Of a stretch of 36,291 nt of DNA, positions 3,465-23,871 are shown in pieces. Numbering within the stretch: the first letter of the stretch is position 1; every line of letters starts with the position of its first letter. The stretch lies in the NCBI GenBank assembly GCA_946482375.1, contig CAMLRH010000002.1, positions 1 to 36,291 of the forward strand, read 5' to 3'. The notes under the pieces are model-generated. The model worked only from the letters and a program-made list of their open reading frames with translations. It was not told the origin of the DNA and searched no databases. Made by a program: the position numbers and the translations under genes. The stretch comes from an uncultured Caulobacteraceae bacterium (GTDB lineage: Bacteria; Pseudomonadota; Alphaproteobacteria; Caulobacterales; Caulobacteraceae).

Positions 3465-6400
3465 AGTACTCTATCCCCAACTTAATCATGGTTTGGTCGC
3501 GAGGGTCATCGCCGTACGGGGAGCCACCGAATGGCCCTCCCCATTCAGGTCGCCGCACTGACTGAACAGCTCCAGCTCCTCTCAGAAGCGTTTCCTCACT
3601 AAAACCGAGCGCCCTGCCTGTTGCTCCGTAATGAAAATTGCCAAAATCTTCATAAAGAAGCGGGTCGGATTTCGGAGAATAGCGCTTATAGTCCCAAACT
3701 CCCCCAGGTTTAACCTTGTCAACCCATAGGGCGATGTTGGCCGCAGCCCCCAAGGTGGAGCTTTCCCCCAAAGGATCGCCCTTACCCTCGACAGAACACA
3801 TATTTTTATCGACATCTGCGCTCTTGGGGTGAACGGGTACCGACGGCTTCGACTTCGTACGCCGAGGAGCAGAGTTATTTGTGTTGGGCACCCACGACAT
3901 GTTCGCCATGATGCTGGTGACGGTATTGACTATAACCGCTCCAGTGACCGTCACTCCACTTAGTGCGGTGAAAGACGGATCTTTCGGGATGTTCTTTTTC
4001 TCGGGGTTCGTGACCATCCCCGTCGGATCCGTCGCGTTGATCGGATCATTACCGACGTAGGCATAGAGGTTCAGCCCGTCCCCATACCCGATCGGGTCGG
4101 TCTGCATGAACCGCCCCAGCGTCGGCGAGTAGAACCGGGCCTTGTAGTTGTAGAGCTCCACCTCCGGCACCCAGACCTGGCCAGTGTACTGGAAGCGGCC
4201 CTGGTTCGACGTGCCGGGCATGCCGTACTCGTCGTAAGTGTTGGTGACAGTCGCCGCGCCCGTCGCGTCCGTCACCGCGATCACCGAGCCCTTGTCGTCG
4301 GCCACCAGCCAGCGGCGGTCGGTGGTCCCCGCGCCCTCGTACCAGACCAGCGGCTCGTCGGCGGCCGGACCGTGGACATAGCGCCTGAGCACCACGCTCA
4401 CCGAAGCCTGCTCGGAGATCATCGCGGCGCCGTCGTAGAGGTATTTCGTCGCCACCCCGCCGCTCGTCAGCTGCTTCATCCGGCCGTTCGCGTCGTGATA
4501 GACGACAGCCCCCGTCACCGAGGTCATCCGGTTCAGCACGTCGTAGCCGTAGGTCTTGGCCCCATCGCCGGCCAGGTTGCCGCGGCCGTCGTAGGTCAGC
4601 GCCGTGGTGTTCGCCGTCGTCAACTGGTTCAGGCCATTGACGCCATAACTCACCTGAGCGCTCGCCTGCGTCGGCGCGTAGGCCGCATTGCTGTTGGTCC
4701 GCGAGGTGATCTGGCCAGCCTTGTTGTAGCTGAAGCCGAAGGTCGCGTCGGCCGCCGTCCCCGCCAGGTCGTTGGTCAGGCTCGCCAGCCGGCCGGCCGG
4801 ATCGTAGGTGTAGGTGCTCGTCACCAGGTTACCCCGCGTCAGCCCCGTGCGCCGGCCAAGGTTGTCGTAGGCGAAGGTCGCCAGCACGCCCACCCCCGAC
4901 GTCGCCCCGTTCTCCCGGATCGCCGTCATCTCGCCGGTCGCCAGGTAGTCGTAGGTCACATAGAAGGCGTCCGGCCAGGTCAGCCGCGTGCGCCGGCCCG
5001 CCAGGTCATATTCGGAGCTCACCGTCCCCATCGGCTGCGTATCGGTAAGCTGGCGGTTCAGCGCGTCATAGGTGTAGCTCGTCACCGCCGTGGCCATGGT
5101 GGCCGAGGTCAGCCGGCCCAGGTTGTCGTAGGCGAAACTCGACGTCAGCGGCCCGGTGACCATCCGATTCAAATTGTCGTAAGTGAACGACTGCGCGCCG
5201 CCGCTGCGGGGCGTCCACTGCGTCACGTTCGACGCGGCGTCGTAGACGTACCACTCGTCATCGCTCGTCGAGCTGGTCCCGTCCGTCGTCGGGCTGGGAT
5301 AGCGCACTCGTTTGAGCCGGTTGAAGACATCGTATTCGTACGTAGTCAGATTGCCTTCGCCGTCCGTCACGGTGGCGACAAGCCCGCTCGCGGTATAGGT
5401 CAAGGTTTGGTCGACGCGCGCCTGGGTGGTCGCATAGCCGCTGGTCACGGTCGCGAGTTGACCGAGCGTGTTGTAACCGTTGCGAGTGACCCGGTCGGGC
5501 CCGGCGGAACTCCAGTTGGTCAGGACGCAAGCGTCCGAGGGAAGCGCACCCCAGGAGGCGCTGTTGATCCGAACCACGGTGCACAGCGCCCGACCAGCGT
5601 TGTCGTAGCTGTACTGTGTGACGGCTTGGGTAGCGCTGCTGGCAACTAGCTCCTCCTTCACCTTGCGGCCTTGCGCATTGTAGGTGATCGATCCCTGCTC
5701 CAGGACCGAAAAGGCGTTCCAGTCGGTGTCGCTTTGTGAGGCCACAGTCCCCCGTTCGATCAATGTCGGATCGCCATCGAGATTGTAGGTCACCCGCACC
5801 GCGCGGTTGAGCATAGCGCCCGCGCCGTCGGGGTCAGGACTGACCATACCAACCAGTTGCCGGGTCGCGTCGTAACGATAGCGGGTCGTATCGTTCGCTA
5901 GCGGGCCATCGACTGTGAGCAAGTTGCCGACGGCGTCATAGGTCGCAGAGGTGGTCGCCGTGAGCGCCCCGTCTCCCGAACCGGAGGAGATGGAAGTCGG
6001 CAACAGGTGGTTGGCAACCCCAGAGGTCCCGTAGGTGACGGCGGTCTTTACCTCCTCTGCCGCTCCCGCACAGGCCGCTGAAGTGGTGCAGGTGGAGATT
6101 TCGGTTAGCCTGTAGACTCCATCGGAGTCCTGTACGAGCGTCGAGGAAGTCTTCTTGTACCAGGCGTTGCGGACCGCATAGGCGTAGGAAGTCTTGGGCC
6201 GCACGGCGCCGGTGGTGGGGGCGGGTTGCGTGACCGACAACACGCCTCCGTGCACGGGATCGTAAACGTAGTCGGTCTGGTTGTTGCGTGCGTCCTTTGT
6301 CCAGTTTGGCTTGTTGCACTTCACCGGATTGCCGCAGGTCGCATCGTAGCCAGCGGATGTCACAATAGTCCCTGCGGTGGGACCGCCTTTAGCGACCACG

Positions 6401-9994: not shown

Positions 9995-11713
9995 ATGGCG
10001 CGCATCCGGCTTGTGGAAATCGAGAATTTCCGCGGAATCAAAACGCTGAAGTGGCGACCAAAGAACGGGATCAACTGCCTCATCGGGCCTGGCGACAGTT
10101 GCAAGACCACCATCCTGGACGCCATCGACCTATGCATGTCAGCCCGCCGGAACCTGCAGTTTACCGACGCGGACTTCCACGGGCTCGACGTCGAGAGCCC
10201 GGTGTCGATCACCTGCACCGTCGGTGCGCTTGAGGACCGGCTCAAGAGCATGGAGGCCTACGGGCTCTATGTGCGCAGCTTCGACTCGGCCAGCGGGGAG
10301 GTCGAAGATGAGCCGGCCAAGGGGCGTGAGACGGTCCTCACCTTGAACCTGACGATCGCCAGCGATCTGGAACCGGCTTGGTCGCTGGTGTCCAACCGAG
10401 CCGCTGCTCAGGGCCAATCCCGTAATCTTTCCTGGGCCGACCGCCAGCGGATCTCGCCCACACGGATCGGGGCCGGTGCCGATCAGAACCTGGTCTGGCG
10501 ACGGGGTTCGATCCTCAACAAGCTGTCGGACGAAAAGGCCGACGCCTCGGCCGCTTTGGTCAAGGCGGCCCGGGAGGCGAGGACGGCGTTCGGTGACCAG
10601 GCTGGGAAAGAGCTGGGCGCGGCTCTGTCGGCGGTGAAGGAGGCCGCGGCGGATCTCGGCATCCCGGTGGGCGGCGATGTGCGCGCCATGCTCGATGCCC
10701 ACTCCGTCTCATTCAGCGGCGGCACGATCTCGCTCCACAGCGAGAGCGGCGTGCCGCTTCGCGCGCTGGGCGTGGGCTCGACGCGGCTGTTGATTGCGGG
10801 CTTGCAGCGCAAAGCCGCCAAGGAAGCCAGCGTAGTCCTGGTGGACGAGTTGGAGCATGGGCTTGAGCCCCATCGCATCCTGCGCCTCCTCCACTCGCTG
10901 GGGAGCCAGGAGGCCGGAGAGCCGATACAGGGATTTCTGACCACCCATTCGCCCGTCGCCCTGCAGGAGCTCTCGGGGGACCAGCTCTGGGTGGTGCGCC
11001 ACAATGACGGCGGCGTCGATGTTGAGTGCGTCGGAGGTGACGACGACGTCCAGAGCACCATACGCGTGTTTCCCGAGGCCTTCCTGGCCCGCTCCGTGAT
11101 CGTCTGCGAGGGCGCCAGCGAGGTGGGCCTGCTGCGCGGACTCGATCGCTGCAGGATCGCTGATGGCAGGCCCTCGCTGACGGCGCTGGGCGTGGCGCTG
11201 GTGGACGCAGGAGGCGTCGACAATATCTACAAGCGCGCCAATGCGCTGCGGAAGCTCGGCTATCGCTGTCAGGTCCTGCGCGATGACGACGTCCAGCCCG
11301 ACGCGGCCGATGAGAAGGCGTTCATCGACGGGGGCGGCGAACTGACCATGTGGTCGAACGGCCGGAAGCTTGAGCAGGAGGTGTTCGCCTGCCTAGACGA
11401 CGACGCGATCGGCGCGCTGCTGGATTATGCCGAGGAACTGCACGACGCCTCGCTTCTGAACGACCACATCAAATCGGTGAGCGGCGGTGTCGACAACTAT
11501 AACGATCTTCGCTTGGAGATGCTGGTCGGCAGTCTCACGGAACCGCAACGCGGACTGCTCGGCCGTGCGTCCAGCCTCAAGAAGAAGGGCTGGTTCAAGT
11601 CCATCACGTGGATGGAGGACGCGACCGTGCGGGCCATCGGTCCCGGCCTGGCGAAAGCCACGGGCGACCTGCCCGCGACCGTGGAGAAGCTTTTCGCTTG
11701 GGCTGTGATGTGA
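9995..11713 (+). CDS. gajA: GajA-like OLD family ATPase/TOPRIM nuclease (Gabija)
   Basis: The protein has 572 residues, close to known GajA. It begins with the ABC-type N-terminal motif MARIRLVEIENFRGIK, then a P-loop at about residues 31-39 that reads GPGDSCKTT. The usual P-loop glycine is replaced by Cys (codon TGC). Downstream are a signature-like LGVGSTRLL, Walker B VVLVDELEHGLEP and the H-loop FLTTHSP. A C-terminal TOPRIM nuclease domain follows, with Glu in VIVCEGASEVGLL and the acidic VLRDDD motif. In Gabija, GajA forms the sequence-specific nuclease core that cuts phage DNA and is gated by nucleotides. GGGGGGA precedes the ATG, and the stop overlaps the next gene (GTGA). Confidence 0.83.
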   Translation: MARIRLVEIENFRGIKTLKWRPKNGINCLIGPGDSCKTTILDAIDLCMSARRNLQFTDADFHGLDVESPVSITCTVGALEDRLKSMEAYGLYVRSFDSASGEVEDEPAKGRETVLTLNLTIASDLEPAWSLVSNRAAAQGQSRNLSWADRQRISPTRIGAGADQNLVWRRGSILNKLSDEKADASAALVKAAREARTAFGDQAGKELGAALSAVKEAAADLGIPVGGDVRAMLDAHSVSFSGGTISLHSESGVPLRALGVGSTRLLIAGLQRKAAKEASVVLVDELEHGLEPHRILRLLHSLGSQEAGEPIQGFLTTHSPVALQELSGDQLWVVRHNDGGVDVECVGGDDDVQSTIRVFPEAFLARSVIVCEGASEVGLLRGLDRCRIADGRPSLTALGVALVDAGGVDNIYKRANALRKLGYRCQVLRDDDVQPDAADEKAFIDGGGELTMWSNGRKLEQEVFACLDDDAIGALLDYAEELHDASLLNDHIKSVSGGVDNYNDLRLEMLVGSLTEPQRGLLGRASSLKKKGWFKSITWMEDATVRAIGPGLAKATGDLPATVEKLFAWAVM

Positions 11714-13128
11714 GCGAGGAGATCGACCTTCTCGGAATCCGGCGCGGCAGCATCACCGCGCCCGCGGGCTGCGGTAAGACGCATCTGATCGCCTCTAGCC
11801 TGCAGGGCCACACTGGCGCGAAGCCGGTGCTGATCCTGACCCATACTACGGCCGGGGTGGTGGCCCTGCGCCAACGGCTGAACAAGATGGATGTCCCGGC
11901 GAGCGCCTACCGGGTGGCCACAATTGACGGCTGGGCAATGAAGCTAGTCGCGATGTTCCCCGAGCGTAGCGCCATCGACCCGACCGTCCTAGAGCTCCGC
12001 AACAGGCACAAGGACTATGTCGCCATCCAGCGCGCCGCACACGAACTGCTGAAAGCGGGCCACATTGATGACGTGCTCTCCGCGAACTTCTCGCACCAGA
12101 TCGCCGACGAGTACCAGGACTGTTCCCGGGACCAGCATGCGATCGTCTATTACGGCTCGCGCTCGCTACCAACCTGCGTGCTGGGCGACCCGATGCAGGC
12201 AGTCTTTACCTTCAGCGGTCCGCTACCGGACTGGGAGACGAACGTCTGCAAATACTTCCCATCGCACGGGGCGCTCGAAACCCCCTGGCGGTGGAAGAAC
12301 GCCGGGACGGAGCCCTTCGGTCTTTGGCTGCTCGACGTGCGCAAACGTCTGGAAGCCGGCCAGAGCATCGACCTGTCGAAGGCCCCGCACCATGTCCAAT
12401 GGATCGAGCTGGATGGGACCGAGGACCACCTTCGCCGCATCCGGGCGGCGGGGACGAAGGCGCCAGGCGACGGGCGGGTTCTGATCATCGGGGACAGTAA
12501 GAGCCCGCCGAGCCAGCGGCTGATCGCCAGTCAGACTGCAGGTGCCATCACCGTCGAAGCGGTCGACCTACGCGACTTCATCGAGTTCGCCATGCTGTTC
12601 CGCCTCGGCGCGGCGGACGCCCTGACGCGACTGGTGCGGTTCGCCGATGAGGTCCTGACCGGCGTCGGCGCCAATGACTACCTGACCCGGATCGCCACTC
12701 TGAAGGCGGGCCGCAATCGAAACCCGCCGACCGAGGCCGAACAGGCGGGCCTGGACTTCGAGGCCCAGCGATCCTTCGAGGCCGCCGTGAACCTGCTGGT
12801 CGAGCTCAATAAGCAGGGTGGCGTCCGGGCTCACCGGCCCCTGGTCTTCAACGCCTGCATCCGCGCGTTGAACGAGGCCGACCCCGCCGATCCGGATTCT
12901 CTGTATGAGGCGGCCGTCCGCGCGCGCGAGCAGAACCGGCAGATCGGCCGCGACCTGCCGCGCCGCGGCGTCGGCAGCACGCTCACGCTCAAGGGCCTGG
13001 AAGCGGAAGTCGCCGTGATCCTCGACCCCTCGGGCATGGACGCCGCCCACCTCTATGTCGCTATGACGCGCGGCTCGAAGGGTCTGGTGATCTGCTCGTC
13101 AACCCCGGTGATCGCGCCGTCCAACTGA
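11710..13128 (+). CDS. gajB: GajB-like UvrD/Rep helicase (Gabija)
   Basis: I choose the GTG at 11710, which overlaps the gajA stop (GTGA); the upstream open frame lies inside gajA. The 472-residue product has compact SF1A helicase motifs: P-loop TAPAGCGKT, LILTHTTAGVVALRQRL (Ia), ADEYQDCSRDQ (II), VLGDPMQAVF (III), LTLKGLEAEVAVI (V) and LYVAMTRGSKGLV (VI). Known GajB proteins are about 490 residues, so this is full length. In Gabija, GajB is thought to sense DNA ends or unwound DNA and to work with the GajA tetramer. The tight overlap with the OLD nuclease gene is the main support for assigning this as GajB rather than a general UvrD. Confidence 0.82.
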   Translation: MSEEIDLLGIRRGSITAPAGCGKTHLIASSLQGHTGAKPVLILTHTTAGVVALRQRLNKMDVPASAYRVATIDGWAMKLVAMFPERSAIDPTVLELRNRHKDYVAIQRAAHELLKAGHIDDVLSANFSHQIADEYQDCSRDQHAIVYYGSRSLPTCVLGDPMQAVFTFSGPLPDWETNVCKYFPSHGALETPWRWKNAGTEPFGLWLLDVRKRLEAGQSIDLSKAPHHVQWIELDGTEDHLRRIRAAGTKAPGDGRVLIIGDSKSPPSQRLIASQTAGAITVEAVDLRDFIEFAMLFRLGAADALTRLVRFADEVLTGVGANDYLTRIATLKAGRNRNPPTEAEQAGLDFEAQRSFEAAVNLLVELNKQGGVRAHRPLVFNACIRALNEADPADPDSLYEAAVRAREQNRQIGRDLPRRGVGSTLTLKGLEAEVAVILDPSGMDAAHLYVAMTRGSKGLVICSSTPVIAPSN

Positions 13129-13397: not shown

Positions 13398-16300
13398 ATG
13401 CCGGACGGCAATGCGGTCGTTTCGATCCGCGAGCGACTGCTTAAGGAGCGGCATGCGCTTCTCGATCTTTCCACTCGGAACCGGTTGCTCAACACTCCGC
13501 TGCGTACCCGGAACAACCGTGCCGTGGAGATTGTGGACGAGGTGGCGCCAGAGGTTTTCCGCCTTCTGACAGCAGGTAAGGCCCTCAGCTTCGTTCCAGG
13601 CGTCGAACTGACTGAAGAGGAAAAGGCTGAACTCGATCCCGAGGACGACATCACCGGCGGCATACCTCAGCCGGATGAGGACGAGGTCGTCGACGCACGC
13701 GGCGTCGCATCTCGCCATGCCGACACTAGGCTCCAGACCAAACTCACCTCCGAAGGGCTGCAGAAGCGGCTTTTCGACATCTGGTACGATGCCCAGACGC
13801 AGGAGCAGGAGCAGGGCGTCAACATCCTCTATCTGGCGCTAGGTCTCCTGCGCTGGTTCGACGACGACAAATCAGACATCGCCCGCCACGCGCCGCTCGT
13901 CCTCCTCCCGGTAAAGCTGGAGCGCAGCAGCGCCGCCGACCGCTTCAAGCTGAAGTGGCGCGAGGAGCCGCCCTCGCCGAACCTGACGCTGCAGGCCAAG
14001 ATGAAGGTCGAGTTCGGCCTCCCGATCGATGACTTCAAGGATGAGGACGAGGTCGATCTCGCCGCCTACTTCGCGAAGGTGGCCGAAACCGTTTCCAAGC
14101 AAAAGCGGTGGGAGGTGCTGCCCAACGCGATGGTGCTCGGCTTCTTCTCGTTCTCCAAATTCCTGATGTATCGCGATCTGGATCCCGAGAACTGGCCGCA
14201 GGAGGGCGCGATCGACGCCAACGCCCTGGTGTCAGCGCTCCTGCGCGACGGCTTTCCCGAAAGCCCGCCGCTGGTCGACGAGGGCGCTCACATCGACGAG
14301 GCAATTCCGGCGCTCGAATTGCAGCACGTGGTGGATGCCGACAGCTCCCAGACTGTGGTGATCGCCGAGGCCGCCGGCGGCCGCACGCTTGTGGTCAAAG
14401 GTCCGCCCGGCACCGGCAAGTCGCAGACCATCACGAACATCATCGCCGCCGCCGCCGCACGCGGGAAGAAGGTGCTGTTCGTCGCTGAAAAGATGGCCGC
14501 CTTGGAGGTGGTCCACCGCCGCCTGCGTCAGGTCGGACTAGGCCCGCTCGCCCTCGAACTTCACTCGAACAAGGCCAACAAGCGCGCGGTGCTGGAGGAG
14601 CTCAAGCGCACACGCGACGCCAACCTTCGCCAGCCGCGCGGCGATCTCACTGTCGTTCAAAAGCTGGGCGACACGACTGGAGAGCTGAACGCCTTCGCCA
14701 TGCGGCTCCACCGGCCGCTGGCGCCATCAGGTCTCACCCCTCACACGATCCTGGGGCGCCTAGCGCAGGCCCAGACGGTCGAGGCGCCCCGTGACCTCGT
14801 GTTGTCGGGTGCTGAGGGCTGGGACCGGGTGGCCGTCGAAAAGCGGCGCACACTGGCGGCCGAGGTTGCTGAGCGGCTCCAAAACCTGGGCCCTGTGCCG
14901 CAACACCCTTGGCGCGGCGTCGGGTGCGACGCGCTCGATCCCGTGGAGCGGGCGGCCCTTGGCGATCGCATCGCTACGGTCCCACCGGTCCTGGACGTTG
15001 CCGAGCGCGAGGCCTCCGCCGCCGCCGAGGTGCTCGGCGCCCCGCCCGCGGCGACCGTCGGGGATCTGAAGATCGCGCTATCCTTCCTGAGCCTCTCGCC
15101 GCTGCCCGAGGGACTCGATCGGCAGGCGCTGACCTCGCCAGCCTGGCGCTCGCCGGGAGCCGAAGGCCTGCGGCTGCTCGTCCAGCTGGGGCGGGATTAC
15201 CAGAGCGCCTGGAGCGCGATCGCCGGCAAATTCAACGACGCTGGCCGACAGGCCGATCTCGGCGCGATCCGCATCGCCGTCGTCACCAAGGGCGCCAACC
15301 TTCTTCGCTTCCTCGACAGCGGCTACCGCGCCCAGATCGCCCTGCTCAGATCCTACCTGAAGGAGCCGCTGCCTTCGAAGCCCGCTGAGCGGCTGGCCTT
15401 GATCGACGCCATGCTGACGGCGCAGACCGCCAAAACGGCATTCGAGGCCGCGTCGTCCGCGGGAGAGGCGTTCGGCTCGATGTGGAAAGCCGAGCAGTCT
15501 GACTGGGACAAGCTGAGCGCGATCCTTGCCTGGCGCGAGGCCCATCAGGCGCTGCCACCCGTCGCGTGGGATCGGCTCGCCGCCAGCTCCGACCTCGAGC
15601 GTATCGAACAATCGCGCCAATCTCTGGCGGTAGCGCTTCCACAGCTGGAAGAGCGGCTGTCTGCCATCATCGGTGAACTGAAGCTGGACCTGGGCCGCTC
15701 GCTGGGGGCGAGTGACCTTCAATCCATCCCTCTGTGCGCCCTTCGTGAGCGGCTGCGCGGCTGGGCCGACAATCTCGAAGCCATCAGCGGCTTCGTGGCC
15801 TTCGGCGCAAGGACGCGAGAGCTGGGGGCACTCGGCTGCCGCAGCCTTGCCGACGGCGTCCACGATGGCGTCCTGAACCCTCACACCCTCGTCCCGGCGT
15901 TCGACGCCGCCTATTGCGAAGTGCTTCGCCGGACGCTGTTCGACGCCTGGCCTGAGCTTCGCGCTTTCGATGGTGAGAGCCAGAACAACCGTGTCGCCGC
16001 CTTCAGGCAGTTGGACAGGGCTCGTATCTCCCTCGCCCAGGAGCAGATCGTCGCCGCCCATGCCGAAGGCCGCCCTCGGGGGGCCGCGGGGATAGGCCCG
16101 CTCGGTGTGCTGAACGCCGAGATCGCGCGAAAGCGCGGCCACCTGCCGATCCGGCTGTTGCTGGAAAAGGCCGGACCCGCCATCCAGCAGCTCAAGCCGG
16201 TGTTCATGATGAGCCCGTTGTCGGTTGCCCAGTTCCTCAAACCCGGCGGGCTGACGTTCGACATCCTCGTCATGGACGAGGCCAGCCAGATCGAGCCAGT

Positions 16301-18173
16301 CGACGCGCTCGGTGCGATAGCTCGCGTCAATCAGCTCGTCATCGTCGGTGACGAGCGCCAGCTGCCACCGACGGCTTTCTTCAAGAAACTCGCCGGCGAA
16401 GAAGACCCGGACGAGACGGACGACGGCGTGACCATCCAGGCCAAGGACGCGGAAAGCATCCTTGAACTGTGCCTGGCCAAGGGCGTGCCTTACCGCATGC
16501 TCAGCTGGCACTACCGCTCCAAGCACCAGTCGCTGATTGCCGTCTCCAACCGCGAGTTCTACGAGAACAAGCTGTTCATCGTGCCCAGCCCCTATGACGC
16601 CGTGGCCGGCATGGGGCTGAAGTTCAACCTGTTGAAGAATGCGCCGTACGACCGCGGCGGCACGCGCACCAACCCTGCCGAAGCGAAGATCGTTGCCGAG
16701 GCCGTCATCCGGCACGCGCGCGAGCACCCCGAGCAGAGCCTTGGCGTGGCCACCTTCTCGGTCGCCCAGCGTCAGACGGTGCTCAAGGAGCTCGAACTCC
16801 TGCGCCGCGCGAACCCCGACGTGGAAGGCTTCTTCGGCGACACCGGGCCCGAGCCATTCTTCGTCAAGAACTTGGAGAACATCCAAGGCGACGAGCGCGA
16901 CGTCATCTTCATCTCCGTCGGCTACGGAAAGAACGAGCAGGGCTACCTCGCTCACGCCTTTGGCCCGTTGAGCGGTGAGGGCGGCGAGCGCCGTCTCAAC
17001 GTCCTGATTTCCCGGGCGAAGATGCGCTGCGAGGTGTTCTGCAACTTCACCGGCGCGGACATCGATCTGGAGCGCACGCGGGCCCGCGGGGTTGCCGCGC
17101 TGAAGCTGTTCCTGACGTTCGCGGAAACGGGCCATTTTGGCCTTGGTGAGGTCTCTGGAGAGGAGTTCGACAGCGAGTTCGAGCTCCAAGTCTGCGAGCG
17201 GCTCCAGGCTTTGGGCTATGACGTAAAGCGCCAGATCGGCGCCAGCGGCTTCCGAGTCGACCTCGCCGTCTCCGACCCTGAAAAGCCTGGGCGCTTCATC
17301 CTCGGCATCGAGTGCGACGGAGCCCAGTATCACTCGTCTCGCTCGGCCCGCGATCGCGACCGCCTTCGTCAGGAGGTGCTCGAAGCCCACGGCTGGGTCA
17401 TCCACCGCGTCTGGAGCGCTGACTGGTACCTTCGCCCGCAAGAGGAATTGAAGAAGATCGAGGCGGCCATCGCCGAGGCGCGCGGCATCTGGCGTGATCG
17501 CGACGAGGGCGGCTTCAGGCCCGAGCGCGCCGTCCCGCTAAGCTTCGAGGACGAGCGCCAGGACGACACCGACATGGTGACGGCGTACGTCGACGCGGGT
17601 CAGCCGGCCACAACCGAACCAGACCGCACGCCGTACGTGGAAGCCTCCTTCCCCGTCAATCGGCGCTACGAGCCGCATGAAACGCCCGTCGCGGACATGG
17701 CGGCCTACGTCGTTCGGATCGTGGAGACTGAAGGCCCGATCCACATCGATGAGATCGCCGCGCGGATCAGAATGCTCTGGGGATTTGGCCGGGCCGGCTC
17801 ACGCATTCGGGGCGCCGTCGCCAACGCTGCCAGCCTAGCTTTCCGCCGTGGGTTCATCACCGGCGGTCCGTTCTATCAGTTTCCGGATAAGCCCATCCTT
17901 GTGCGGGATCGCTCGCAGGTCACGTCGCCAACCCTGCGAAAGCCGGAGATGCTCCCGCCGGCCGAAATCGACGAAGCGCTGATCCGCATCGTCGACACCA
18001 ACTTCGGCGCGGCGCGCAATGAGCTGGTCATGACAGCGTCCCGCGGCTTCGGCTTTGCCGCCACCAGCGCCCAGCTCCGCAGTACCATCGACGCCGGCAT
18101 CGACCGCCTTCTGGCGACAGGCCTGCTCGTCGAGCGCGATGGCTTCCTCGTGCGTCCGAAGGCCGCCCCATGA
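13398..18173 (+). CDS. DUF4011 helicase with Vsr-like nuclease and DUF3320 (Hhe-like defence protein)
   Basis: The protein has 1591 residues. The DUF4011-type N-terminus (LLDLSTRNRLLNTPLRTRNN near residue 20) is followed by an Upf1-like SF1 helicase. That part has P-loop GPPGTGKSQT (about 335), Walker B FDILVMDEASQ (about 958), GDERQLPPTAF, WHYRSKHQSLI, and a C-terminal NIQGDERDVI and LNVLISRAK. A Vsr/MTES_1575-type nuclease domain follows (about 1260-1345), with SEFELQVCERL, Asp in FRVDLAV, and GIECDGAQYHSS. A DUF3320-like tail ends it (about 1430-1580). This order matches the DUF4011-helicase-Vsr protein reported as an anti-phage system (Hhe). Start ATG has GGGGAGG before it. A partner gene overlaps by ATGA. 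Confidence 0.85.
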   Translation: MPDGNAVVSIRERLLKERHALLDLSTRNRLLNTPLRTRNNRAVEIVDEVAPEVFRLLTAGKALSFVPGVELTEEEKAELDPEDDITGGIPQPDEDEVVDARGVASRHADTRLQTKLTSEGLQKRLFDIWYDAQTQEQEQGVNILYLALGLLRWFDDDKSDIARHAPLVLLPVKLERSSAADRFKLKWREEPPSPNLTLQAKMKVEFGLPIDDFKDEDEVDLAAYFAKVAETVSKQKRWEVLPNAMVLGFFSFSKFLMYRDLDPENWPQEGAIDANALVSALLRDGFPESPPLVDEGAHIDEAIPALELQHVVDADSSQTVVIAEAAGGRTLVVKGPPGTGKSQTITNIIAAAAARGKKVLFVAEKMAALEVVHRRLRQVGLGPLALELHSNKANKRAVLEELKRTRDANLRQPRGDLTVVQKLGDTTGELNAFAMRLHRPLAPSGLTPHTILGRLAQAQTVEAPRDLVLSGAEGWDRVAVEKRRTLAAEVAERLQNLGPVPQHPWRGVGCDALDPVERAALGDRIATVPPVLDVAEREASAAAEVLGAPPAATVGDLKIALSFLSLSPLPEGLDRQALTSPAWRSPGAEGLRLLVQLGRDYQSAWSAIAGKFNDAGRQADLGAIRIAVVTKGANLLRFLDSGYRAQIALLRSYLKEPLPSKPAERLALIDAMLTAQTAKTAFEAASSAGEAFGSMWKAEQSDWDKLSAILAWREAHQALPPVAWDRLAASSDLERIEQSRQSLAVALPQLEERLSAIIGELKLDLGRSLGASDLQSIPLCALRERLRGWADNLEAISGFVAFGARTRELGALGCRSLADGVHDGVLNPHTLVPAFDAAYCEVLRRTLFDAWPELRAFDGESQNNRVAAFRQLDRARISLAQEQIVAAHAEGRPRGAAGIGPLGVLNAEIARKRGHLPIRLLLEKAGPAIQQLKPVFMMSPLSVAQFLKPGGLTFDILVMDEASQIEPVDALGAIARVNQLVIVGDERQLPPTAFFKKLAGEEDPDETDDGVTIQAKDAESILELCLAKGVPYRMLSWHYRSKHQSLIAVSNREFYENKLFIVPSPYDAVAGMGLKFNLLKNAPYDRGGTRTNPAEAKIVAEAVIRHAREHPEQSLGVATFSVAQRQTVLKELELLRRANPDVEGFFGDTGPEPFFVKNLENIQGDERDVIFISVGYGKNEQGYLAHAFGPLSGEGGERRLNVLISRAKMRCEVFCNFTGADIDLERTRARGVAALKLFLTFAETGHFGLGEVSGEEFDSEFELQVCERLQALGYDVKRQIGASGFRVDLAVSDPEKPGRFILGIECDGAQYHSSRSARDRDRLRQEVLEAHGWVIHRVWSADWYLRPQEELKKIEAAIAEARGIWRDRDEGGFRPERAVPLSFEDERQDDTDMVTAYVDAGQPATTEPDRTPYVEASFPVNRRYEPHETPVADMAAYVVRIVETEGPIHIDEIAARIRMLWGFGRAGSRIRGAVANAASLAFRRGFITGGPFYQFPDKPILVRDRSQVTSPTLRKPEMLPPAEIDEALIRIVDTNFGAARNELVMTASRGFGFAATSAQLRSTIDAGIDRLLATGLLVERDGFLVRPKAAP

Positions 18174-18925
18174 TCGGGACCGACCTCGAGCGCTTCGCTG
18201 CCGTCAGGGCCGCCCTGGCTCGCAAGGCTGCCGCCTCCCGTCTCCTCGGTCGCATCTCCATGGCCGAGCAGGATGATTCCGACTCCATGGTAGACGCAGG
18301 CGACATCGCGGACGCGCCCCCACTCCAGTTCCACCTCCTCTACCAGGATGACCGCGGGCGCCGCTCCCAGCGTGTGGTCACGGTGCGGGCAGTGGAAAAG
18401 CGCGGCGCCGAGACGATCCTGCGGTGCTTCTGCCATCTACGGGAGGCCCCGCGTAGTTTCGCTATAGCCCGCATTCTGGAGGTGTTCGACTTAAGCAGCG
18501 GAGAGGTTCACGAGGATCCTTCCAGGTTCTTTCTAGAGCATCCGCTGCTCGGAACCGCGGCCACGGCCGAAGATCAAGCGGTGCAAAGCTGCCAGGACGA
18601 GCTGGTTGTCCTCGTGGTCGTGGCCGCGTGCGATGGCCTGCTTCACTCAGATGAAGAGGATCAGCTCCTCATCCACGTGTTCAACCGCTGTTCAGAACAT
18701 CTACTGGACGAGCAGATAGTGCGGCGGCATGTCGGAGCTATTGTGCCTGATGAGGCATCATTCCGATCTGCGCTAGGCCGATTGTCGAGACGGTCGCCTG
18801 CGGACCTCGGGCCGTTTTCACGCACGCTGCGTCGGCTAGTCGATGCGGACGGGCGACTGCACGCCGATGAAGTGCGCGCCGTGGTCGACATCGAGACACA
18901 CCTGGGATGCCACCTCTCGGGCTGA
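18170..18925 (+). CDS. WYL-domain plus TerB-like protein, likely partner of the helicase-nuclease
   Basis: The ATG overlaps the helicase stop (ATGA), so the two genes are translationally coupled. The first ~45 residues are charged with no clear HTH. A WYL-like domain lies at about 50-115 (FHLLYQDDRGRRSQRVVTVR, ETILRCFCHLREAPRSFAIA, then RI). It is followed by a TerB-like helical region with acidic loops (VVLVVVAACDGLLHSDEEDQ and LVDADGRLHADEV, about 145-245). WYL domains bind nucleic acid or nucleotide ligands and act as sensors in defence loci. Without a DNA-binding domain this copy is more likely an effector-bound regulator than a transcription factor. The pairing and role are inferred from position. 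Confidence 0.72.
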   Translation: MIGTDLERFAAVRAALARKAAASRLLGRISMAEQDDSDSMVDAGDIADAPPLQFHLLYQDDRGRRSQRVVTVRAVEKRGAETILRCFCHLREAPRSFAIARILEVFDLSSGEVHEDPSRFFLEHPLLGTAATAEDQAVQSCQDELVVLVVVAACDGLLHSDEEDQLLIHVFNRCSEHLLDEQIVRRHVGAIVPDEASFRSALGRLSRRSPADLGPFSRTLRRLVDADGRLHADEVRAVVDIETHLGCHLSG

Positions 18926-18999: not shown

Positions 19000-20544
19000 T
19001 CAGGTGAGAGCAAACACCTGCCGCTGTAGCGACCAGTCCATCGGAAGCTCCGAACCGAGCAGGTCGGTGAGGCCATAGTCGCGCAGACGCCGACCTGAGA
19101 TGATCGATTCGGTAATGTCCGGTGCAAGCCAGGCGAGCTTCAGCACCTTGTCCACGTAGCGGGACTGCAAGCCCTCTCGCGCTGCGATGTCGTCGGCGCC
19201 GGCGCGCTCGCCTGTCACCAACTGCTGTTCCCAGCGCTTGCCGCGGGCGATCGCGCGTTGGAGCGCGACATCGGGGCCCAGGGGTTGGAGCGGCGAGCCA
19301 TTGGAGTCTGTGACCCGCTTTGCGCCGCCGACGGTTCTTAACGCCGCGGCCAGCTCCACCTCGGCTGCTGTGCCATCTGAGCTCTTGAGCAGGAGCTTCA
19401 GCCCCTTCTCCGAGACGACGATGCGCTCGATCTGACTGACGGCGTCTTCCTCACTACCCCCCGACCGTTCGCGCAGCTGCGACAACACCAGCTCCTCGAC
19501 AGCAGCGGCGGGCACACGCCCCAGCGATCCCGCTTGGCCTCGATCGCTCCGCAGCAGCGCCTGGCTGACATAATAGCGATGCGTTCGCCCTCCGCGCTTG
19601 GTCGTTGTCGGGCTCATGGGATGTCCGCGATCGTCGAAGATCTTGCCGGCGAGCAGGCTCCCGGTTCGCGTTGCCGCACCCTTGGCACCGCCTCCGACTT
19701 TCGCCTGCAGCTGGCGCTGAACGGCCTCGAACAACTCCTCGTCTATGATGGCAGGGTGTCGGCCCGCATGGACCTTGCCCTTGTGCACGATGAGGCCGCG
19801 GTAGATGGGATTCTTGAGGACATAGTAGAGCGGCCCCTCCTGCCACGCCCCTCCGCCGATCTCCCGCCCAGCTGCCGAGACCCGCTTCTTTGTGGTCACG
19901 CCCTGAGCCTTCAGCTCCGCTGCCAGCTTTGTGACCGTGCCGAGCTTGAGGTACTCACGAAAGATCATGCGCACCGTCTCCGCCTCGGCCTCATTGACGA
20001 TGAGGACGCGGTTCGTTGGGTCGGTGGGGATGTCGTAGCCGAGCGGCACGTTGCCGCCCATCCACATTCCCTTGGCCTTCGAAGCGGCGATCTTGTCTCG
20101 GATGCGCTCGCCCGTGACCTCCCGCTCGAACTGGGCGAAGGACAGCAGCACGTTCAGCGTGAGGCGGCCCATGCTGGTCGTGGTGTTGAACGCCTGAGTG
20201 ACCGAGACGAAGGAAACGCCGCCCTTGTCGAAGGTCTCTACGATCCGGGCGAAGTCGGTGAGGGAGCGGGTCAGGCGATCCACCTTGTAGACGACCACCA
20301 CATCGATCCCGCCCCGCTCGATGTCGCTCAAGAGCTGCTTGAGGGCGGGACGCTCCATGCTGCCGCCGGAATACCCGCCGTCGTCGTAGATCGTCGGAAG
20401 CGCGGCCCACCCTTCACCCGCTTGAGACAGGACGTAGGCTTCGCACGCCTCCCTCTGGGCGTGCAGGCTGTTGAACCCTTGCTCCAGACCCTCTTCAGAC
20501 GACTTGCGGGTGTAGATCGCGCAGCGAAGCTGCGACGCCGCCAT
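19000..20544 (-). CDS. Large serine recombinase (integrase/resolvase family)
   Basis: The protein has 514 residues from the ATG at 20544, which overlaps the preceding stop (TGATG). The N-terminal resolvase domain has RCAIYTRKSSEEGLEQ (nucleophilic Ser), YDDGGYSGGSMERPALK, VVVVYKVDRLTRS and FAQFEREVTGERIRDK. The recombinase domain follows (IFREYLKLGTVTKLAAEL, ENPIYRGLIVHKG-like VLKNPIYRG). The region near residue 320 has a His-containing RTHRYYVS motif, then a C-terminal helical part. Such enzymes integrate and excise mobile elements without host factors. It is encoded after DUF2924 and DUF3489 genes, a trio common in alphaproteobacterial islands. It is the probable mobiliser of this region. 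Confidence 0.88.
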   Translation of the reverse strand: MAASQLRCAIYTRKSSEEGLEQGFNSLHAQREACEAYVLSQAGEGWAALPTIYDDGGYSGGSMERPALKQLLSDIERGGIDVVVVYKVDRLTRSLTDFARIVETFDKGGVSFVSVTQAFNTTTSMGRLTLNVLLSFAQFEREVTGERIRDKIAASKAKGMWMGGNVPLGYDIPTDPTNRVLIVNEAEAETVRMIFREYLKLGTVTKLAAELKAQGVTTKKRVSAAGREIGGGAWQEGPLYYVLKNPIYRGLIVHKGKVHAGRHPAIIDEELFEAVQRQLQAKVGGGAKGAATRTGSLLAGKIFDDRGHPMSPTTTKRGGRTHRYYVSQALLRSDRGQAGSLGRVPAAAVEELVLSQLRERSGGSEEDAVSQIERIVVSEKGLKLLLKSSDGTAAEVELAAALRTVGGAKRVTDSNGSPLQPLGPDVALQRAIARGKRWEQQLVTGERAGADDIAAREGLQSRYVDKVLKLAWLAPDITESIISGRRLRDYGLTDLLGSELPMDWSLQRQVFALT

Positions 20545-21023
20545 CAAGCCGCCCCCTTCAGCTTGTCGCGCAGGCCGAAAAATAGGGGCCCGTTCCAGCG
20601 CGTGCCGGTGATCGCCCGCGCGACTTCCGAGAGGGAGCCATAGATCACCCCCTGATGCACGAAGCCGGCCGGCGTCACCTCAACCTTGTGCCTCACACCC
20701 TTCCAATCCCGGATCAAGGAGACGCCGGGGCTCAGTCGGATGAGCGGTGCGACCCTAGTTGTCTTGTCGCGGATTCGCTTCGCTTCCAGCTCCTGGAGCT
20801 TTCGCTTTGCTGATCCTGACAGGCCCCCATGCGCGAACTCTTGCAGCCGATAAGCCAGCATCCGCCGCAGGATCTCTCGACTTCCCATAGACGGTGGGTC
20901 TTCCCGCAGGTGCTCGCGCCAGAGCACCCGAAGGTCCGCCAGGCGAGCGACTGAAACCGTGGCCATGACGTCTTCCAATTCCGCACAAAGGCGGCGCCGT
21001 TGAGCGTTGGTTGGGCTGCTCAT
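20544..21023 (-). CDS. DUF2924 domain protein
   Basis: The protein has 159 residues if it starts at the ATG at 21023 (MSSPTNAQRRR). Upstream in-frame codons overlap the neighbouring gene and lack a ribosome site. It contains the DUF2924 pattern: LRVLWREHLREDPPSMGSRE, ILRRMLAYRLQEFAHGGLS, then VSLIRDWKGVRHKVEVTPAG and YGSLSEVARAITGTRWNGP, where the last part resembles a small DNA-binding fold. The family occurs almost always beside serine recombinases of this type in alphaproteobacterial phages and islands. It may help recombination directionality, but this is not established. It overlaps the recombinase start by one base (TGATG) and begins 10 bp after DUF3489. Confidence 0.83.
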   Translation of the reverse strand: MSSPTNAQRRRLCAELEDVMATVSVARLADLRVLWREHLREDPPSMGSREILRRMLAYRLQEFAHGGLSGSAKRKLQELEAKRIRDKTTRVAPLIRLSPGVSLIRDWKGVRHKVEVTPAGFVHQGVIYGSLSEVARAITGTRWNGPLFFGLRDKLKGAA

Positions 21024-21033
21024 CGTTGACCGA

Positions 21034-21282
21034 CTAGTCCGCGAGCAGCCTGTAGACGTGCCGGCCATCCACCTTCTCCGAAGTGATCGGGAGGCCGAGC
21101 TTCTTCTTTACCGTGCCGGACAATGCGCCTCGAACCGAGTGCGGCTGCCAACCAGTGGCCTTGGTCAACTCCTTCAGATCAACGCCCTGCTTCCGGCGGA
21201 GAAGCGCAATGATGGTATCGACTTTGCTGCTCACGACTTTCGCCGCGACTTTGGACGGCTTGCTATTCTTCGCTTTGCTCAT
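21034..21282 (-). CDS. DUF3489 domain protein
   Basis: A small basic protein of 82 residues from the ATG at 21282 (MSKAKNSKPSK), with GGAG 8 nt upstream; a longer in-frame start at 21321 has no such signal. The body is a winged-helix-like DUF3489 unit: DTIIALLRRKQGVDLKELTK, ATGWQPHSVRGALSG, KKKLGLPITSEKVDGRHVYR. It is likely a DNA-binding accessory protein of the recombinase operon (DUF3489, DUF2924, recombinase in order). Whether it represses the operon or acts in excision cannot be told from the sequence. Confidence 0.82.
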   Translation of the reverse strand: MSKAKNSKPSKVAAKVVSSKVDTIIALLRRKQGVDLKELTKATGWQPHSVRGALSGTVKKKLGLPITSEKVDGRHVYRLLAD

Positions 21283-21404
21283 GTTTGTTGCTCCAGCGCC
21301 CCAATGGCGCTGGCCCGACAACGCTTCCCTTCACGAGTAAGTCCAGCCGACAAAACTGCGAATAGACCAGCAGTACCTCACAGAAGCGGGCCGACAGGCG
21401 ACGA

Positions 21405-21854
21405 TCACGTGCGCCTTGTTAACTTGCGGAGCTGGTTTGGGAACGTCCGGCCCCACTCCGTGTTGGCCAAATCAGAGTCGATGGTGAGTTGCCTCTCCAG
21501 ACTTTCAAGCGCCTCGAATTCGCGCTTGTGCACCTCGAAATGTTCCAAGACGGCTTTGCCGTACATGCTCAGGAAGAACCTCATCGAAGGTCCGTGTCCG
21601 GCAATCGCTTTTTGACCAAGCTTGAAGTAGATGGCTTCCGCGATAGTGACGACAATGTCGCCCTCCGGCGTGCGCAAGGTCGTCTGCATTTCCGCGACAC
21701 GGAAGATGTCGCGACGGAGTTGTCGCGCTGTCAGTGATCGCTCTACCTTCGGCGGACGTCCGCGGGGATTGCCGGATTGCCCCTTCTTGAACCGGGTCTC
21801 CACAGGAGGACGTCGGTAGCCGACCTTGTATTCCGGCTCATCGTCGTCGCTCAT
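21405..21854 (-). CDS. DUF5681 domain protein
   Basis: The protein has 149 residues from the ATG at 21854, which overlaps the methyltransferase stop (ATGA). The N-terminal basic motif YKVGYRRPPVETRFKKGQSG, then NPRGRPPK, is the DUF5681 hallmark, an AT-hook-like element. The rest is helical with no catalytic motif (RQLRRDIFRVAEMQTTLRTP, LGQKAIAGHGPSMRFFLSMY). The family accompanies ParB-methyltransferase fusions in alphaproteobacterial prophages and islands. DNA binding is likely from the motif; the biological role is not known. Confidence 0.8.
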   Translation of the reverse strand: MSDDDEPEYKVGYRRPPVETRFKKGQSGNPRGRPPKVERSLTARQLRRDIFRVAEMQTTLRTPEGDIVVTIAEAIYFKLGQKAIAGHGPSMRFFLSMYGKAVLEHFEVHKREFEALESLERQLTIDSDLANTEWGRTFPNQLRKLTRRT

Positions 21855-23191
21855 TGGCCTTGCTCCTGCCGCGCGGTTCTCCAGCTTGAACGGACAGTCC
21901 GAGCGACCTCGAAGGTCTGGCCACTGTCCGCGTGAACGGCAGCCTTTCCAGTCAGCTTTTCCCATCGGCGTACGATTAGATCGCAATAGCTTGGATCGAT
22001 CTCGGCAAGGCGCGCGCAACGACCTGTCTTCTGAGCTGCGATTAGCGTGGTGCCGGAGCCCCCAAAGACATCGAGGACGAGCTCGCCGCGGTGAGTCACA
22101 TCCCGGATCGCGTCGGCGACCAGCGCTACCGGCTTCACGGTTGGATGGGAGGTCAGCTCGTCCATCCGGCCAGCCTTGAAGGTGTTCACGCCAGGATAAC
22201 TCCACACGTTCGTGCGATAGCGTCCCTTGTCTCCAAGGCCGAACGTGTTGGTGTGAGGAGCATTCCCTACCTTCCAGACCAGGACAAGCTCGTGGCGCGA
22301 GCGATAGAAGGCGCCCATCCCACCATTGGTCTTTGCCCACACGCAGACGTTCTTCAGCTCTGAAAACGTCTTGTAGCCCGCCGCCAGAACCTCGCGCAGG
22401 TGGCGCCAATCCATACAGACGTAAGCAATCGCTCCATCGCGACACATGTTTGCCGCTGCGCCCAGCGTTCGCTCAAGAAACTCGATGAACTGGTCCACGG
22501 ACATCTCGCCGGCTGCCTCGGCGAATTCTCGGTGCTGAGTGCGACCAAGGCCTGAGACGTGACCTTGAATGGGTACGTTGTAGGGCGGGTCGGTAAAAAG
22601 CATGTCAGCTCGCTGATCGCCCATCAGCTTCTCAAGCACGACCGGGTCCTTGGCGTCGCCGCAGACCAGCGCATGGCGGCCAAGGATCCAGTGGTCACCA
22701 GGTTGGCTGATCGCCTGGAGCGGATCCCCTAACTCTGGATGCTCGTCCTCCGGCGCCGACGGTTGTGGCGAAGAGTCGGCGTTATCGCAGAGCAACTGGT
22801 CAACTTCGCCGAGGTCGAAGCCTGTCAGGCTTATGTCAAATTCGAGCTCAGCGAGGGCTTCTAGCTCGGTCGAAAGGATTTCCACGTCCCAGCCGGCGTT
22901 CAGCGCCAGCTTGTTGTCCGCAATAACGTAGGCGCGCTTCTCGGCATCCGACATCTGGCTCAGTCGCACGCAGGGAATCTGCGCCATCCCTAATTCGCGT
23001 GCTGCAGCGACGCGACCGTGGCCCGCCAGGATCATGCCGGCATCATCAATCAAAACTGCGTTGGTGAAACCGAAGCGGCGGATTGAGCTAGCGATCTGAG
23101 ATATCTGCTGCTTGGAGTGGGTCCTTGCGTTTCCAGGGGCAGCCTTGAGCTGCTCCAAGGAAATCTGCTCGATCGCGGTCGCGCTGGGCAT
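21851..23191 (-). CDS. ParB-domain / DNA methyltransferase fusion
   Basis: The protein has 446 residues. Residues 1-120 are a ParB/Srx-type domain (LEQLKAAPGNARTHSKQQIS, ILAGHGRVAAARELGM, RAYVIADNKLALNAGW). The rest is an N4/N6-type DNA methyltransferase. It has the catalytic DPPY motif in MLFTDPPYNVPIQGHVSG (about residue 205), and the AdoMet motif LVLDVFGGSGTTLIAAQKTG lies near the C-terminus. DPPY before FGGSGTT gives a beta-class order. No restriction enzyme gene is adjacent, so it is an orphan methylase, as common in phages and islands. It may protect the element's DNA or regulate it. The promoter is probably in the AT-rich stretch upstream. Confidence 0.88.
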   Translation of the reverse strand: MPSATAIEQISLEQLKAAPGNARTHSKQQISQIASSIRRFGFTNAVLIDDAGMILAGHGRVAAARELGMAQIPCVRLSQMSDAEKRAYVIADNKLALNAGWDVEILSTELEALAELEFDISLTGFDLGEVDQLLCDNADSSPQPSAPEDEHPELGDPLQAISQPGDHWILGRHALVCGDAKDPVVLEKLMGDQRADMLFTDPPYNVPIQGHVSGLGRTQHREFAEAAGEMSVDQFIEFLERTLGAAANMCRDGAIAYVCMDWRHLREVLAAGYKTFSELKNVCVWAKTNGGMGAFYRSRHELVLVWKVGNAPHTNTFGLGDKGRYRTNVWSYPGVNTFKAGRMDELTSHPTVKPVALVADAIRDVTHRGELVLDVFGGSGTTLIAAQKTGRCARLAEIDPSYCDLIVRRWEKLTGKAAVHADSGQTFEVARTVRSSWRTARQEQGQ

Positions 23192-23523
23192 AGCTGCGTA
23201 CTTCTTCCTGACGATGGGGCCACGACCAAGAATCAGGTCGCAGCGGCATGATCAGGGTCTCGATGCGAGGAACTAACGTCAATACATATTATAAAAAAAC
23301 CACATCAATACTAACCCGCGACTTTTTCAGTGATAATTGATTATGTGATAACTTCGTTTCAACATTCAAAGTGAACATTGGCTTCCCCGTTGGCCGGTTA
23401 TCGTCGCCCGGAAGCGCCGGCGCACGCCTTGGCGAATAGCCTTCGCCAGCACGCCCGATTGAAGACACACCTTCAGAATGGGCGGCAGTATCGCCGTGCC
23501 TTCGGAAACGACCTTGGCCGGGC
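23192..23523. other. Intergenic region with AT-rich core
   Basis: This 332-bp stretch has no convincing gene. Bases about 23280-23345 are far richer in A+T than the surroundings. It separates the methyltransferase start from the 3' end of the XRE regulator gene, so it should hold the methyltransferase promoter and perhaps a terminator for the regulator. Confidence 0.6.
23288..23293 (-). promoter_or_regulatory. Possible -10 box for the methyltransferase gene
   Basis: A perfect TATAAT reads on the minus strand in the AT-rich stretch, 97 bp before the methyltransferase start codon. The matching -35 is poor (GGTTAG at 17 bp), so the promoter is tentative. Confidence 0.35.
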
Positions 23524-23871
23524 TTAGCGCTTGAAGCCGCCAGCGAGAGCTTCGATCTGTTGAACGGCAATCTTCAACGTCTCGTCGTCCAAACTGCGGA
23601 CAAGTTCCCGCATATAGGCTTCGAGCTGCACGCGCGCTTGGCCACCATCAGGGGAGCCTGCGCCTTCGAAGAACTCGGCCAGCGGAACGTCCAACGCCTT
23701 CGCAAGCGAAGCCAGCGTATCGAGCATCGGCAAATGCCGGCCACGTTCGATATTCGACACGCTCTCCGGTGTCTTACCGATGCGCTCGCCGAGTTCGTCC
23801 TGGCTTAGCCCTGCGCGCTTGCGCGCCGCACGGACCTTTGATCCCAAAGTTCGCTTGAGGTCTTCGAGCAT
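23524..23871 (-). CDS. XRE-family HTH transcriptional regulator
   Basis: The protein has 115 residues. The lambda-Cro/CI-type helix-turn-helix spans about residues 8-65 (LGSKVRAARKRAGLSQDELG, ERIGKTPESVSNIERGRHLP, LDTLASLAKALDVPLAEFFE). An acidic C-terminal helix follows (DDETLKIAVQQIEALAGGF) that could dimerise. It is divergent from the exported protein gene at 23980 across 108 bp containing inverted and direct repeats, a probable operator region. It is likely a repressor of itself and neighbouring island genes. Targets are inferred only. Confidence 0.85.
   Translation of the reverse strand: MLEDLKRTLGSKVRAARKRAGLSQDELGERIGKTPESVSNIERGRHLPMLDTLASLAKALDVPLAEFFEGAGSPDGGQARVQLEAYMRELVRSLDDETLKIAVQQIEALAGGFKR

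What the first reader, a model, noticed from the sequence alone, without database searches (positions are those of the whole stretch)
13398..18925. Two-gene unit: DUF4011 helicase-nuclease coupled to a WYL/TerB-like protein
The helicase-nuclease resembles the single-gene Hhe architecture, yet here an ATGA overlap couples it to a gene combining a ligand-sensing WYL domain and TerB-like helices with no visible DNA-binding domain. This suggests a regulated two-component version in which the small protein senses a nucleic-acid or nucleotide signal and controls the large effector. This is my best candidate for an undescribed system.
Basis: partly seen in the sequence, partly recalled or inferred. 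Interest (0 to 1): 0.7.

Follow-up and report, generated by a model that had tools for sequence, protein, structure and literature searches.

The report
Helicase-nuclease with optional WYL-TerB partner
A bacterial gene for a large DNA-unwinding and DNA-cutting protein of a known anti-virus kind is joined, with overlapping genes, to a small probable DNA-sensing protein that most of its examined relatives lack and whose relatives turn up beside another anti-virus system and in viruses.

Summary
A 1591-aa DUF4011/SF1-helicase/MTES_1575-nuclease/DUF3320 gene (13398-18173) overlaps a 251-aa WYL+TerB gene (18170-18925) by ATGA, directly after a Gabija pair. By NCBIfam the large gene is not Hhe (994 bits, cut-off 2000). 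It is PADLOC candidate PDC-S37 (1816 bits) and just passes NCBIfam "anti-phage protein ProA" (1502.6, cut-off 1500). An obligate two-component system is not supported: a full partner lies beside 2 of 19 relatives in genome contigs, and one more locus keeps only its first ~43 codons. Yet the pairing recurs, with the same junction at 73-75% helicase identity; a fourth pair is inferred. WYL-TerB relatives also flank Shango systems in three genomes and occur in six viral contigs without the helicase. Four of five arginines placed on single-stranded DNA in Pif1-WYL are invariant in 15 of 15 close relatives; the fifth is lost in these but kept in some distant ones. Best reading: a self-sufficient helicase-nuclease with a dispensable, fast-evolving accessory that probably binds ssDNA and tunes it.

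The parts
13398..18173 (+). PDC-S37/ProA-type DUF4011 SF1 helicase with a PD-(D/E)XK (MTES_1575, Vsr-like) nuclease and DUF3320; probable ribosome site ggggagg just upstream (by eye)
13458..14003 (+). DUF4011 domain (residues 21-202)
14340..14531 (+). AAA_11, N-terminal helicase part with Walker A GPPGTGKS (residues 335-342)
16452..17045 (+). AAA_12, C-terminal helicase motor domain (residues 1019-1216)
17178..17471 (+). MTES_1575 nuclease domain (residues 1261-1358); D1288 and E1305-C-D1307 invariant in the 117 sequences aligned
17670..17810 (+). DUF3320 domain (residues 1425-1471)
18170..18173 (+). ATGA overlap: stop of the helicase and start of the partner
18170..18925 (+). WYL-TerB accessory protein, 251 aa
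18329..18484 (+). WYL domain (residues 54-105); R68, C88, R91, R95, F97, R101 invariant in 15 close relatives
18605..18907 (+). TerB-like domain (residues 146-246) with two DG-x5-E motifs (D155/E162, D227/E234; acidic residues invariant in 15, G156 is A in one)
9995..11713 (+). GajA (Gabija OLD-type nuclease), neighbouring defence system, not part of the unit
11608..13128 (+). GajB (Gabija UvrD-like helicase); the best model match begins at residue 37, so the true start is probably near 11716
19000..20547 (-). large serine recombinase flanking the defence genes, possibly how the island moved (inference)

Best explanation
The large gene is a self-sufficient anti-phage helicase-nuclease of the PDC-S37/ProA kind that unwinds and cuts invading DNA (inferred from its domains). 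In a lineage in or near Caulobacteraceae it has gained a translationally coupled, dispensable accessory, the WYL-TerB protein. The accessory most likely works in trans like the C-terminal WYL module of Pif1-type SF1 helicases: its basic groove holds single-stranded DNA made during infection or unwinding, and its TerB part docks on the helicase or another partner, raising or gating the nuclease. Shown: the gene pair, the shared overlap, recurrence with at least one loss, intact helicase and nuclease motifs, four of five ssDNA arginines kept, and placement of relatives beside Shango. Inferred: ssDNA as ligand, physical contact, direction of the effect, and defence itself.
For: PADLOC PDC-S37 1816 bits over residues 9-1584 and NCBIfam ProA 1502.6 against 1500. 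Setting with Gabija and a serine recombinase. Motor and nuclease residues invariant. Helicase without a full partner in 17 of 19 loci. ATGA junction with partner sequence in window, L001, L011 and L004. A fourth pair inferred: helicase P0010 and partner P0002 are both listed with a contig of 17338 bases. WYL residues R68, R91, R95, R101 align with R464, R491, R495, R501 of chain 8bnv, taken to be DdPif1, and are invariant in 15 of 15 close relatives. Those arginines are placed on ssDNA in a DdPif1 model (passages of PMC9964779), and PafB arginines that match by position are needed for ssDNA binding (passages of PMC11804915; mapping mine). WYL-TerB relatives sit divergently beside Shango loci in three genomes, and SngA's TerB matches the partner model.
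Against: The fifth ssDNA arginine (DdPif1 R498, PafC R201) is A/I/M/L/S in the 15 close relatives, although 13 of 29 further relatives with the site readable have R there and 9 have all five. The matching PafB residue belongs to a double mutant (R211A/R214A) that abolishes ssDNA binding, so ligand or mode may differ here. Partner and helicase were seen apart far more often than together, so function need not be joint. ATGA at the helicase stop also occurs without a partner (L006, L008, L018). The WYL structure matches are weak (E 0.0074 and 0.042).
Confidence: 0.5

Rival explanations
1. Passenger: the WYL-TerB gene is a phage-derived or independently mobile cargo gene (for example for lysogeny, recombination or superinfection exclusion) that landed behind the helicase and borrows its translation, with no joint function.
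For: Six viral contigs carry relatives without the helicase in the fetched flanks, near ParB_N proteins in L026, L028 and L030, an S24-type protein in L027 and RecT in L029. A clade holding viral L026 is sister to the L001/L011 partners. The partner is lost while the helicase stays (L004).
Against: The junction with the partner is kept where helicases differ by 25-27%, though shared descent alone would do that. Two distant WYL-TerB clades also flank Shango, which chance cargo would not favour.
Confidence: 0.3
2. Restraint: the WYL-TerB protein is an immunity-like brake that keeps a toxic helicase-nuclease quiet until a nucleic-acid signal arrives.
For: Translational coupling would keep the two in proportion. 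The partner is more diverged than every 250-aa helicase window in 5 of 6 pairings, which fits a sensor or brake under pressure.
Against: Most examined relatives carry the helicase with no partner, and one kept an intact helicase after the partner decayed.
Confidence: 0.12
3. Transcriptional regulator: the WYL protein controls expression of the island, as BrxR or CapW do.
For: WYL proteins near defence systems are often regulators (search listing; passages). The Shango-side copies are divergently transcribed.
Against: No HTH at E<=1 in Pfam for 11 members. Here the gene is last in the unit, not divergent.
Confidence: 0.05

Closest known systems
PADLOC PDC-S37 (candidate defence protein)
   Same: Full-length match of the helicase, 1816 bits, residues 9-1584
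   Different: Taken to be a one-gene candidate (my reading of the S in the name, recalled); the window adds a WYL-TerB partner
NCBIfam NF058533 anti-phage protein ProA
   Same: 1502.6 bits, just over the cut-off of 1500
   Different: Model is 1903 positions; the first 355 have no counterpart here. No paper describing it was recognised in the listings
Hhe (DUF4011-helicase-nuclease)
   Same: Matches PADLOC Hhe (715 bits) and NCBIfam Hhe in the helicase-nuclease region
   Different: 994 bits against a cut-off of 2000, so not Hhe by NCBIfam
Shango (SngABC)
   Same: TerB plus helicase; WYL-TerB relatives flank three Shango loci; SngA TerB matches the partner model
   Different: No Sng match to helicase or partner here; the helicase is SF1 with its own nuclease
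Pif1 helicases with C-terminal WYL domain (T. elfii, D. desulfuricans)
   Same: SF1 helicase with a WYL module; four of five ssDNA arginines shared
   Different: Fused in cis; no TerB or nuclease named in the passages read
RspWYL1 of type VI-D CRISPR
   Same: Separate WYL accessory that boosts a defence effector (abstract)
   Different: Has a ribbon-helix-helix domain, binds ssRNA, acts with Cas13d

Membership tests
PDC-S37 / NCBIfam ProA | Full-length profile match; for ProA, score over the curated cut-off | tested here: met
   PDC-S37 1816 bits (no cut-off given); ProA 1502.6 against 1500, with model positions 1-355 unmatched
PDC-S37 / NCBIfam ProA | Anti-phage activity | not testable with these tools
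   Needs phage challenge
Hhe | NCBIfam NF042953 curated cut-off of 2000 bits | tested here: not met
   994.2 bits
Shango | SngA, SngB and SngC together | tested here: not met
   Helicase and partner have no Sng match in the PADLOC scan
WYL domain proteins | Pfam PF13280 above the gathering score; four basic residues and a Cys lining the groove | tested here: met
   22.2 against 21.8 bits; R68, C88, R91, R95, R101 invariant in 15; pattern as described in passages of PMC4012209
TerB proteins | Pfam PF05099 above the gathering score | tested here: inconclusive
   18.5 against 24.4 in the window protein; 11 of 11 family members match at E<=1, best 2.1e-7
WYL transcription factors (BrxR, CapW, PafBC, DriD) | DNA-binding HTH domain | tested here: not met
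   None at E<=1 in 11 members
ssDNA-binding WYL (Pif1-WYL, PafBC) | Five groove arginines | tested here: inconclusive
   Four invariant in 15 close relatives, the fifth replaced by A/I/M/L/S; all five in 9 of 29 further relatives
Obligate two-gene system | Partner beside most homologues | tested here: not met
   2 of 19 loci full, 1 remnant, 16 none

The most novel reading that the evidence does not exclude
WYL-TerB proteins are portable, trans-acting ssDNA sensors that plug into different helicase-based defence systems (the PDC-S37/ProA helicase-nuclease here, Shango elsewhere) and are also carried by phages, with TerB as the docking part and WYL as the signal reader: a shared regulatory module across otherwise unrelated systems.
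Probability: 0.25. Interest if true: 0.65.

Novelty: new variant of a known kind. Interest (0 to 1): 0.42.

Why it matters
If the accessory senses ssDNA and switches a helicase-nuclease, it would help explain how such nucleases spare host DNA, and would give TerB domains, linked to defence without a clear role, a testable job as adaptors between sensor and motor. Because the helicase persists without it in related bacteria, natural with/without pairs exist for direct comparison.

Tried and rejected
Fusion evidence: one search found 7961 matches to the helicase and listed the best 120 (one is the window's own); none of the 120 carries WYL or TerB among its precomputed Pfam domains. The other matches were not seen.

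Plasmids: tblastn of the partner found nothing in 72,556 records, while the helicase matched 441, 13 of them over 80% of its length. Phage records: partner not found in 50,697. Helicase in viral contigs: none by six peptide patterns.

A named partner family: NCBIfam gave only chance-level matches to 15 members (best E 0.035). PHROGs gave phrog_6785, of unknown function, for 7 of 7 proteins.

Tree test of recurrent gain: the coupled helicases (the L004 remnant counted in) need at least 2 changes on the tree, which may be two gains or one gain with losses. L006 keeps ATGAGTTGG, as in L011 and L004, before the sequence departs, which hints at loss; this is a short match and weak. The partner tree has open forks and its phage/coupled split is not settled.

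Co-occurrence of WYL-TerB and Shango in Caulobacteraceae: 2 genomes shared, given 10 of 390 and 8 of 388, P = 0.015. The two genomes are near kin (SngB 98% identical), so this is one event at best; with one shared genome P = 0.19. I do not rest on it. Of the six other SngB genomes none has a WYL-TerB gene in the fetched stretch.

Rows dropped: A2, on which the 15-of-15 counts rest, leaves out L027, L031 and the genome loci fetched later; these are, where conservation is lower (extra rows, of 31: R68 28, R91 19, R95 25, R101 24) and two rows (L091, L097) carry no WYL part because only a fragment was picked up. The partner tree used 5 distant relatives out of those then fetched and left out L031. 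L017 and L019 (partial helicases) were left out of the helicase tree. Of the 120 helicases only the 117 longer than 1550 aa were aligned. In some searches at most 6 or 7 candidates per genome were scored.

Literature: searched. No listed paper was seen to pair a DUF4011 gene with a WYL-TerB gene. The nearest is PMC10250203 (passages): a core DUF4011 gene, next to a small hypothetical gene, flanks a P. aeruginosa hotspot that also holds Shango; whether that small gene is a WYL-TerB was not tested. Most subscription journals and bioRxiv are not held.

Not done: structure and complex prediction (switched off).

Full report
WHAT IS THERE. The two ORFs are real and at the stated coordinates. The first encodes 1591 aa with DUF4011, split SF1 helicase domains (AAA_11, AAA_12), an MTES_1575 PD-(D/E)XK nuclease (Vsr-like) and DUF3320. 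Its Walker A (GPPGTGKS, 335-342), Walker B (DEAS, 960-963) and the nuclease D1288 and E1305-C-D1307 are invariant in 117 aligned sequences, and most other helicase-motif residues checked nearly so (R987 is an exception at 56%). The second encodes 251 aa with a WYL domain (22.2 bits, cut-off 21.8) and a TerB-like domain that is sub-threshold in this protein but seen in all 11 family members scanned. The stop and start overlap as ATGA. Upstream are GajA and GajB of Gabija; downstream a large serine recombinase, DUF2924, and a DNA methylase with a sub-threshold ParB_N match.

WHAT THE LARGE GENE IS. It matches PADLOC PDC-S37 over its whole length (1816 bits) and NCBIfam "anti-phage protein ProA" (1502.6 bits, cut-off 1500, with model positions 1-355 unmatched). 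It does not reach the NCBIfam cut-off for Hhe (994 of 2000). It is therefore a catalogued defence candidate rather than an unknown protein. The term PDC-S37 is in no held paper, and no paper describing ProA was recognised in the listings.

IS THE PARTNER PART OF IT? In genome contigs 19 loci encode a relative of the helicase. A full partner follows directly in L001 (Caulobacter sp. AP07) and L011 (Alphaproteobacterium L41A). L004 (Brevundimonas sp. SH203) has about its first 43 codons and then unrelated sequence, with an intact helicase. The other 16 have none. L003 and L006 end about 520 and 285 bases after the helicase and could not hold a full partner, though neither continues as one. Whole genomes of 18 of the 19 were searched: full partner in 2, remnant in 1. 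A fourth pair is inferred: helicase P0010 (91% identical) and partner P0002 (67%) are both listed with a 17,338-base contig; I did not read that contig. So the pairing recurs but is far from obligatory.

HOW THE PAIR EVOLVES. The junction is the same in window, L001, L011 and L004, with helicases 73-75% identical across the window or P0010, L001 and L011. Against this, ATGA also ends the helicase in L006, L008 and L018, which lack the partner, so the four bases alone prove little. The partner is more diverged than every 250-aa window of the helicase in 5 of 6 pairings (the inferred P0010-P0002 pair included); the exception is L001-L011. On the helicase tree the coupled genes fall in two places ({window, P0010, L001} and {L011, L004}, the latter beside uncoupled Phenylobacterium), needing at least two changes: two gains, or one gain and losses. 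The L004 remnant, and more weakly a nine-base match in L006, speak for losses.

WHERE ELSE THE PARTNER FAMILY LIVES. Six viral contigs (IMG/VR) hold relatives (36-43% identity) with no helicase in the fetched flanks; L031 has no clean ORF over the match. Neighbours there include ParB_N proteins, an S24-type protein and RecT. In an order-wide sample 12 of 398 genomes have a WYL-TerB gene at E<=1e-10 and 27 of 398 a helicase relative at E<=1e-100. G005 (the genome of L011) has the pair; the loci of the other 11 genomes show no helicase in the fetched stretch, one of which is only 3.3 kb. In the family sample 10 of 390 genomes have it, in the class sample 11 of 385, mostly at lower similarity. 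Of the loci fetched from those two samples (7, 11) the only helicase match was a short weak one to a different SF1 helicase in L092 (none in the 11). By eye many of these lie beside ordinary genes.

THE SHANGO LINK. In L091 and L092 the gene lies head-to-head with a Shango system (SngA 246 and 249 bits; in L091 SngB 572 and SngC 787; in L092 SngB and SngC 98% and 95% identical to those). L050, from a distant WYL-TerB clade, has the same arrangement, judged by tblastn (SngA, SngB, SngC at 32, 65 and 44% identity). SngA's own TerB domain matches the TerB half of the partner model (17.6-24.7 bits). Of 8 genomes with SngB among 388, 2 have the WYL-TerB neighbour; the other 6 do not, though L130, L131 and L132 have a different TerB-like ORF of about 200 aa after SngC (weak model hits in L130 and L132, L131 judged by eye). 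The overlap is not statistically firm once kinship is allowed for.

MECHANISM. The best structure matches of the partner profile are the WYL domains of 8bnv (E 0.0074) and PafC 7p5x (E 0.042): weak, but in register. The record of 8bnv says only "AAA family ATPase"; I take it for D. desulfuricans Pif1 from its length (510) and its arginines at the positions named in the paper. R464, R491, R495 and R501 correspond to R68, R91, R95 and R101, invariant in 15 of 15 close relatives; R498 corresponds to position 98, which is A, I, M, L or S. Among 31 further rows conservation is lower (R68 28, R91 19, R95 25, R101 24), yet 13 have R at position 98 and 9 have all five: the full set looks ancestral and the window's clade has dropped one. 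In the passages read, those arginines are placed on ssDNA in the Pif1 model, and the WYL of T. [quoted passage not shown] In PafBC several arginines, equivalent by my mapping, are required for ssDNA binding, including one equivalent to position 98 as part of a double mutant (PMC11804915). I therefore favour an ssDNA-reading accessory that acts on the helicase in trans, but the lost arginine leaves ligand and mode open. RspWYL1 of type VI-D CRISPR is a precedent for a separate WYL accessory that boosts a defence effector (abstract). WYL-TerB fusions themselves were already noted in 2014 (PMC4012209 passages).

VERDICT. Observation right; interpretation half right. It is a rare accessory variant of a known helicase-nuclease, made more interesting by relatives of the same small protein beside Shango and in phages.

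Noticed in passing
window 9995-13128: Full-length Gabija pair (GajA 767 bits, GajB 598 bits) directly upstream.
   Followed up: partly
window 3433-7644 (-), 793-2388 (-): RHS-repeat protein with an Ntox44 toxin domain at its C-terminus, and another RHS-repeat protein: looks like a polymorphic toxin locus beside the defence genes.
   Followed up: no
window 19000-23871 (-): Serine recombinase, DUF2924, DNA methylase (ParB_N match below cut-off) and HTH genes, perhaps the element that brought the island; TonB receptor, two-component system and PEP carboxylase follow.
   Followed up: no
L091 9032-16004, L092 2599-9554, L050 9188-16159: WYL-TerB gene head-to-head with Shango genes in three genomes.
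   Followed up: partly
L092 9710-13099 (-): A different SF1 helicase (1129 aa, PADLOC MkoA 140 bits) on the other side of the WYL-TerB gene, convergent with it.
   Followed up: no
L130 11303-11908, L131 11204-11806, L132 6935-7540: TerB-like ORF of about 200 aa after SngC, possibly another Shango accessory.
   Followed up: no
L026, L028, L030: ParB_N protein with an N-terminal winged-helix-like stretch (some matches below Pfam cut-offs) near the WYL-TerB gene of viral contigs.
   Followed up: no
L006 3258-5906 and L008 10780-14537: SbcCD-like genes (by eye) next to the helicase in Phenylobacterium and Sphingopyxis, where no partner follows.
   Followed up: no
PMC10250203 (passages): P. aeruginosa hotspot cDHS1, which often holds Shango, is flanked by a core DUF4011 gene and a small hypothetical gene; possible echo of this pairing.
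   Followed up: no
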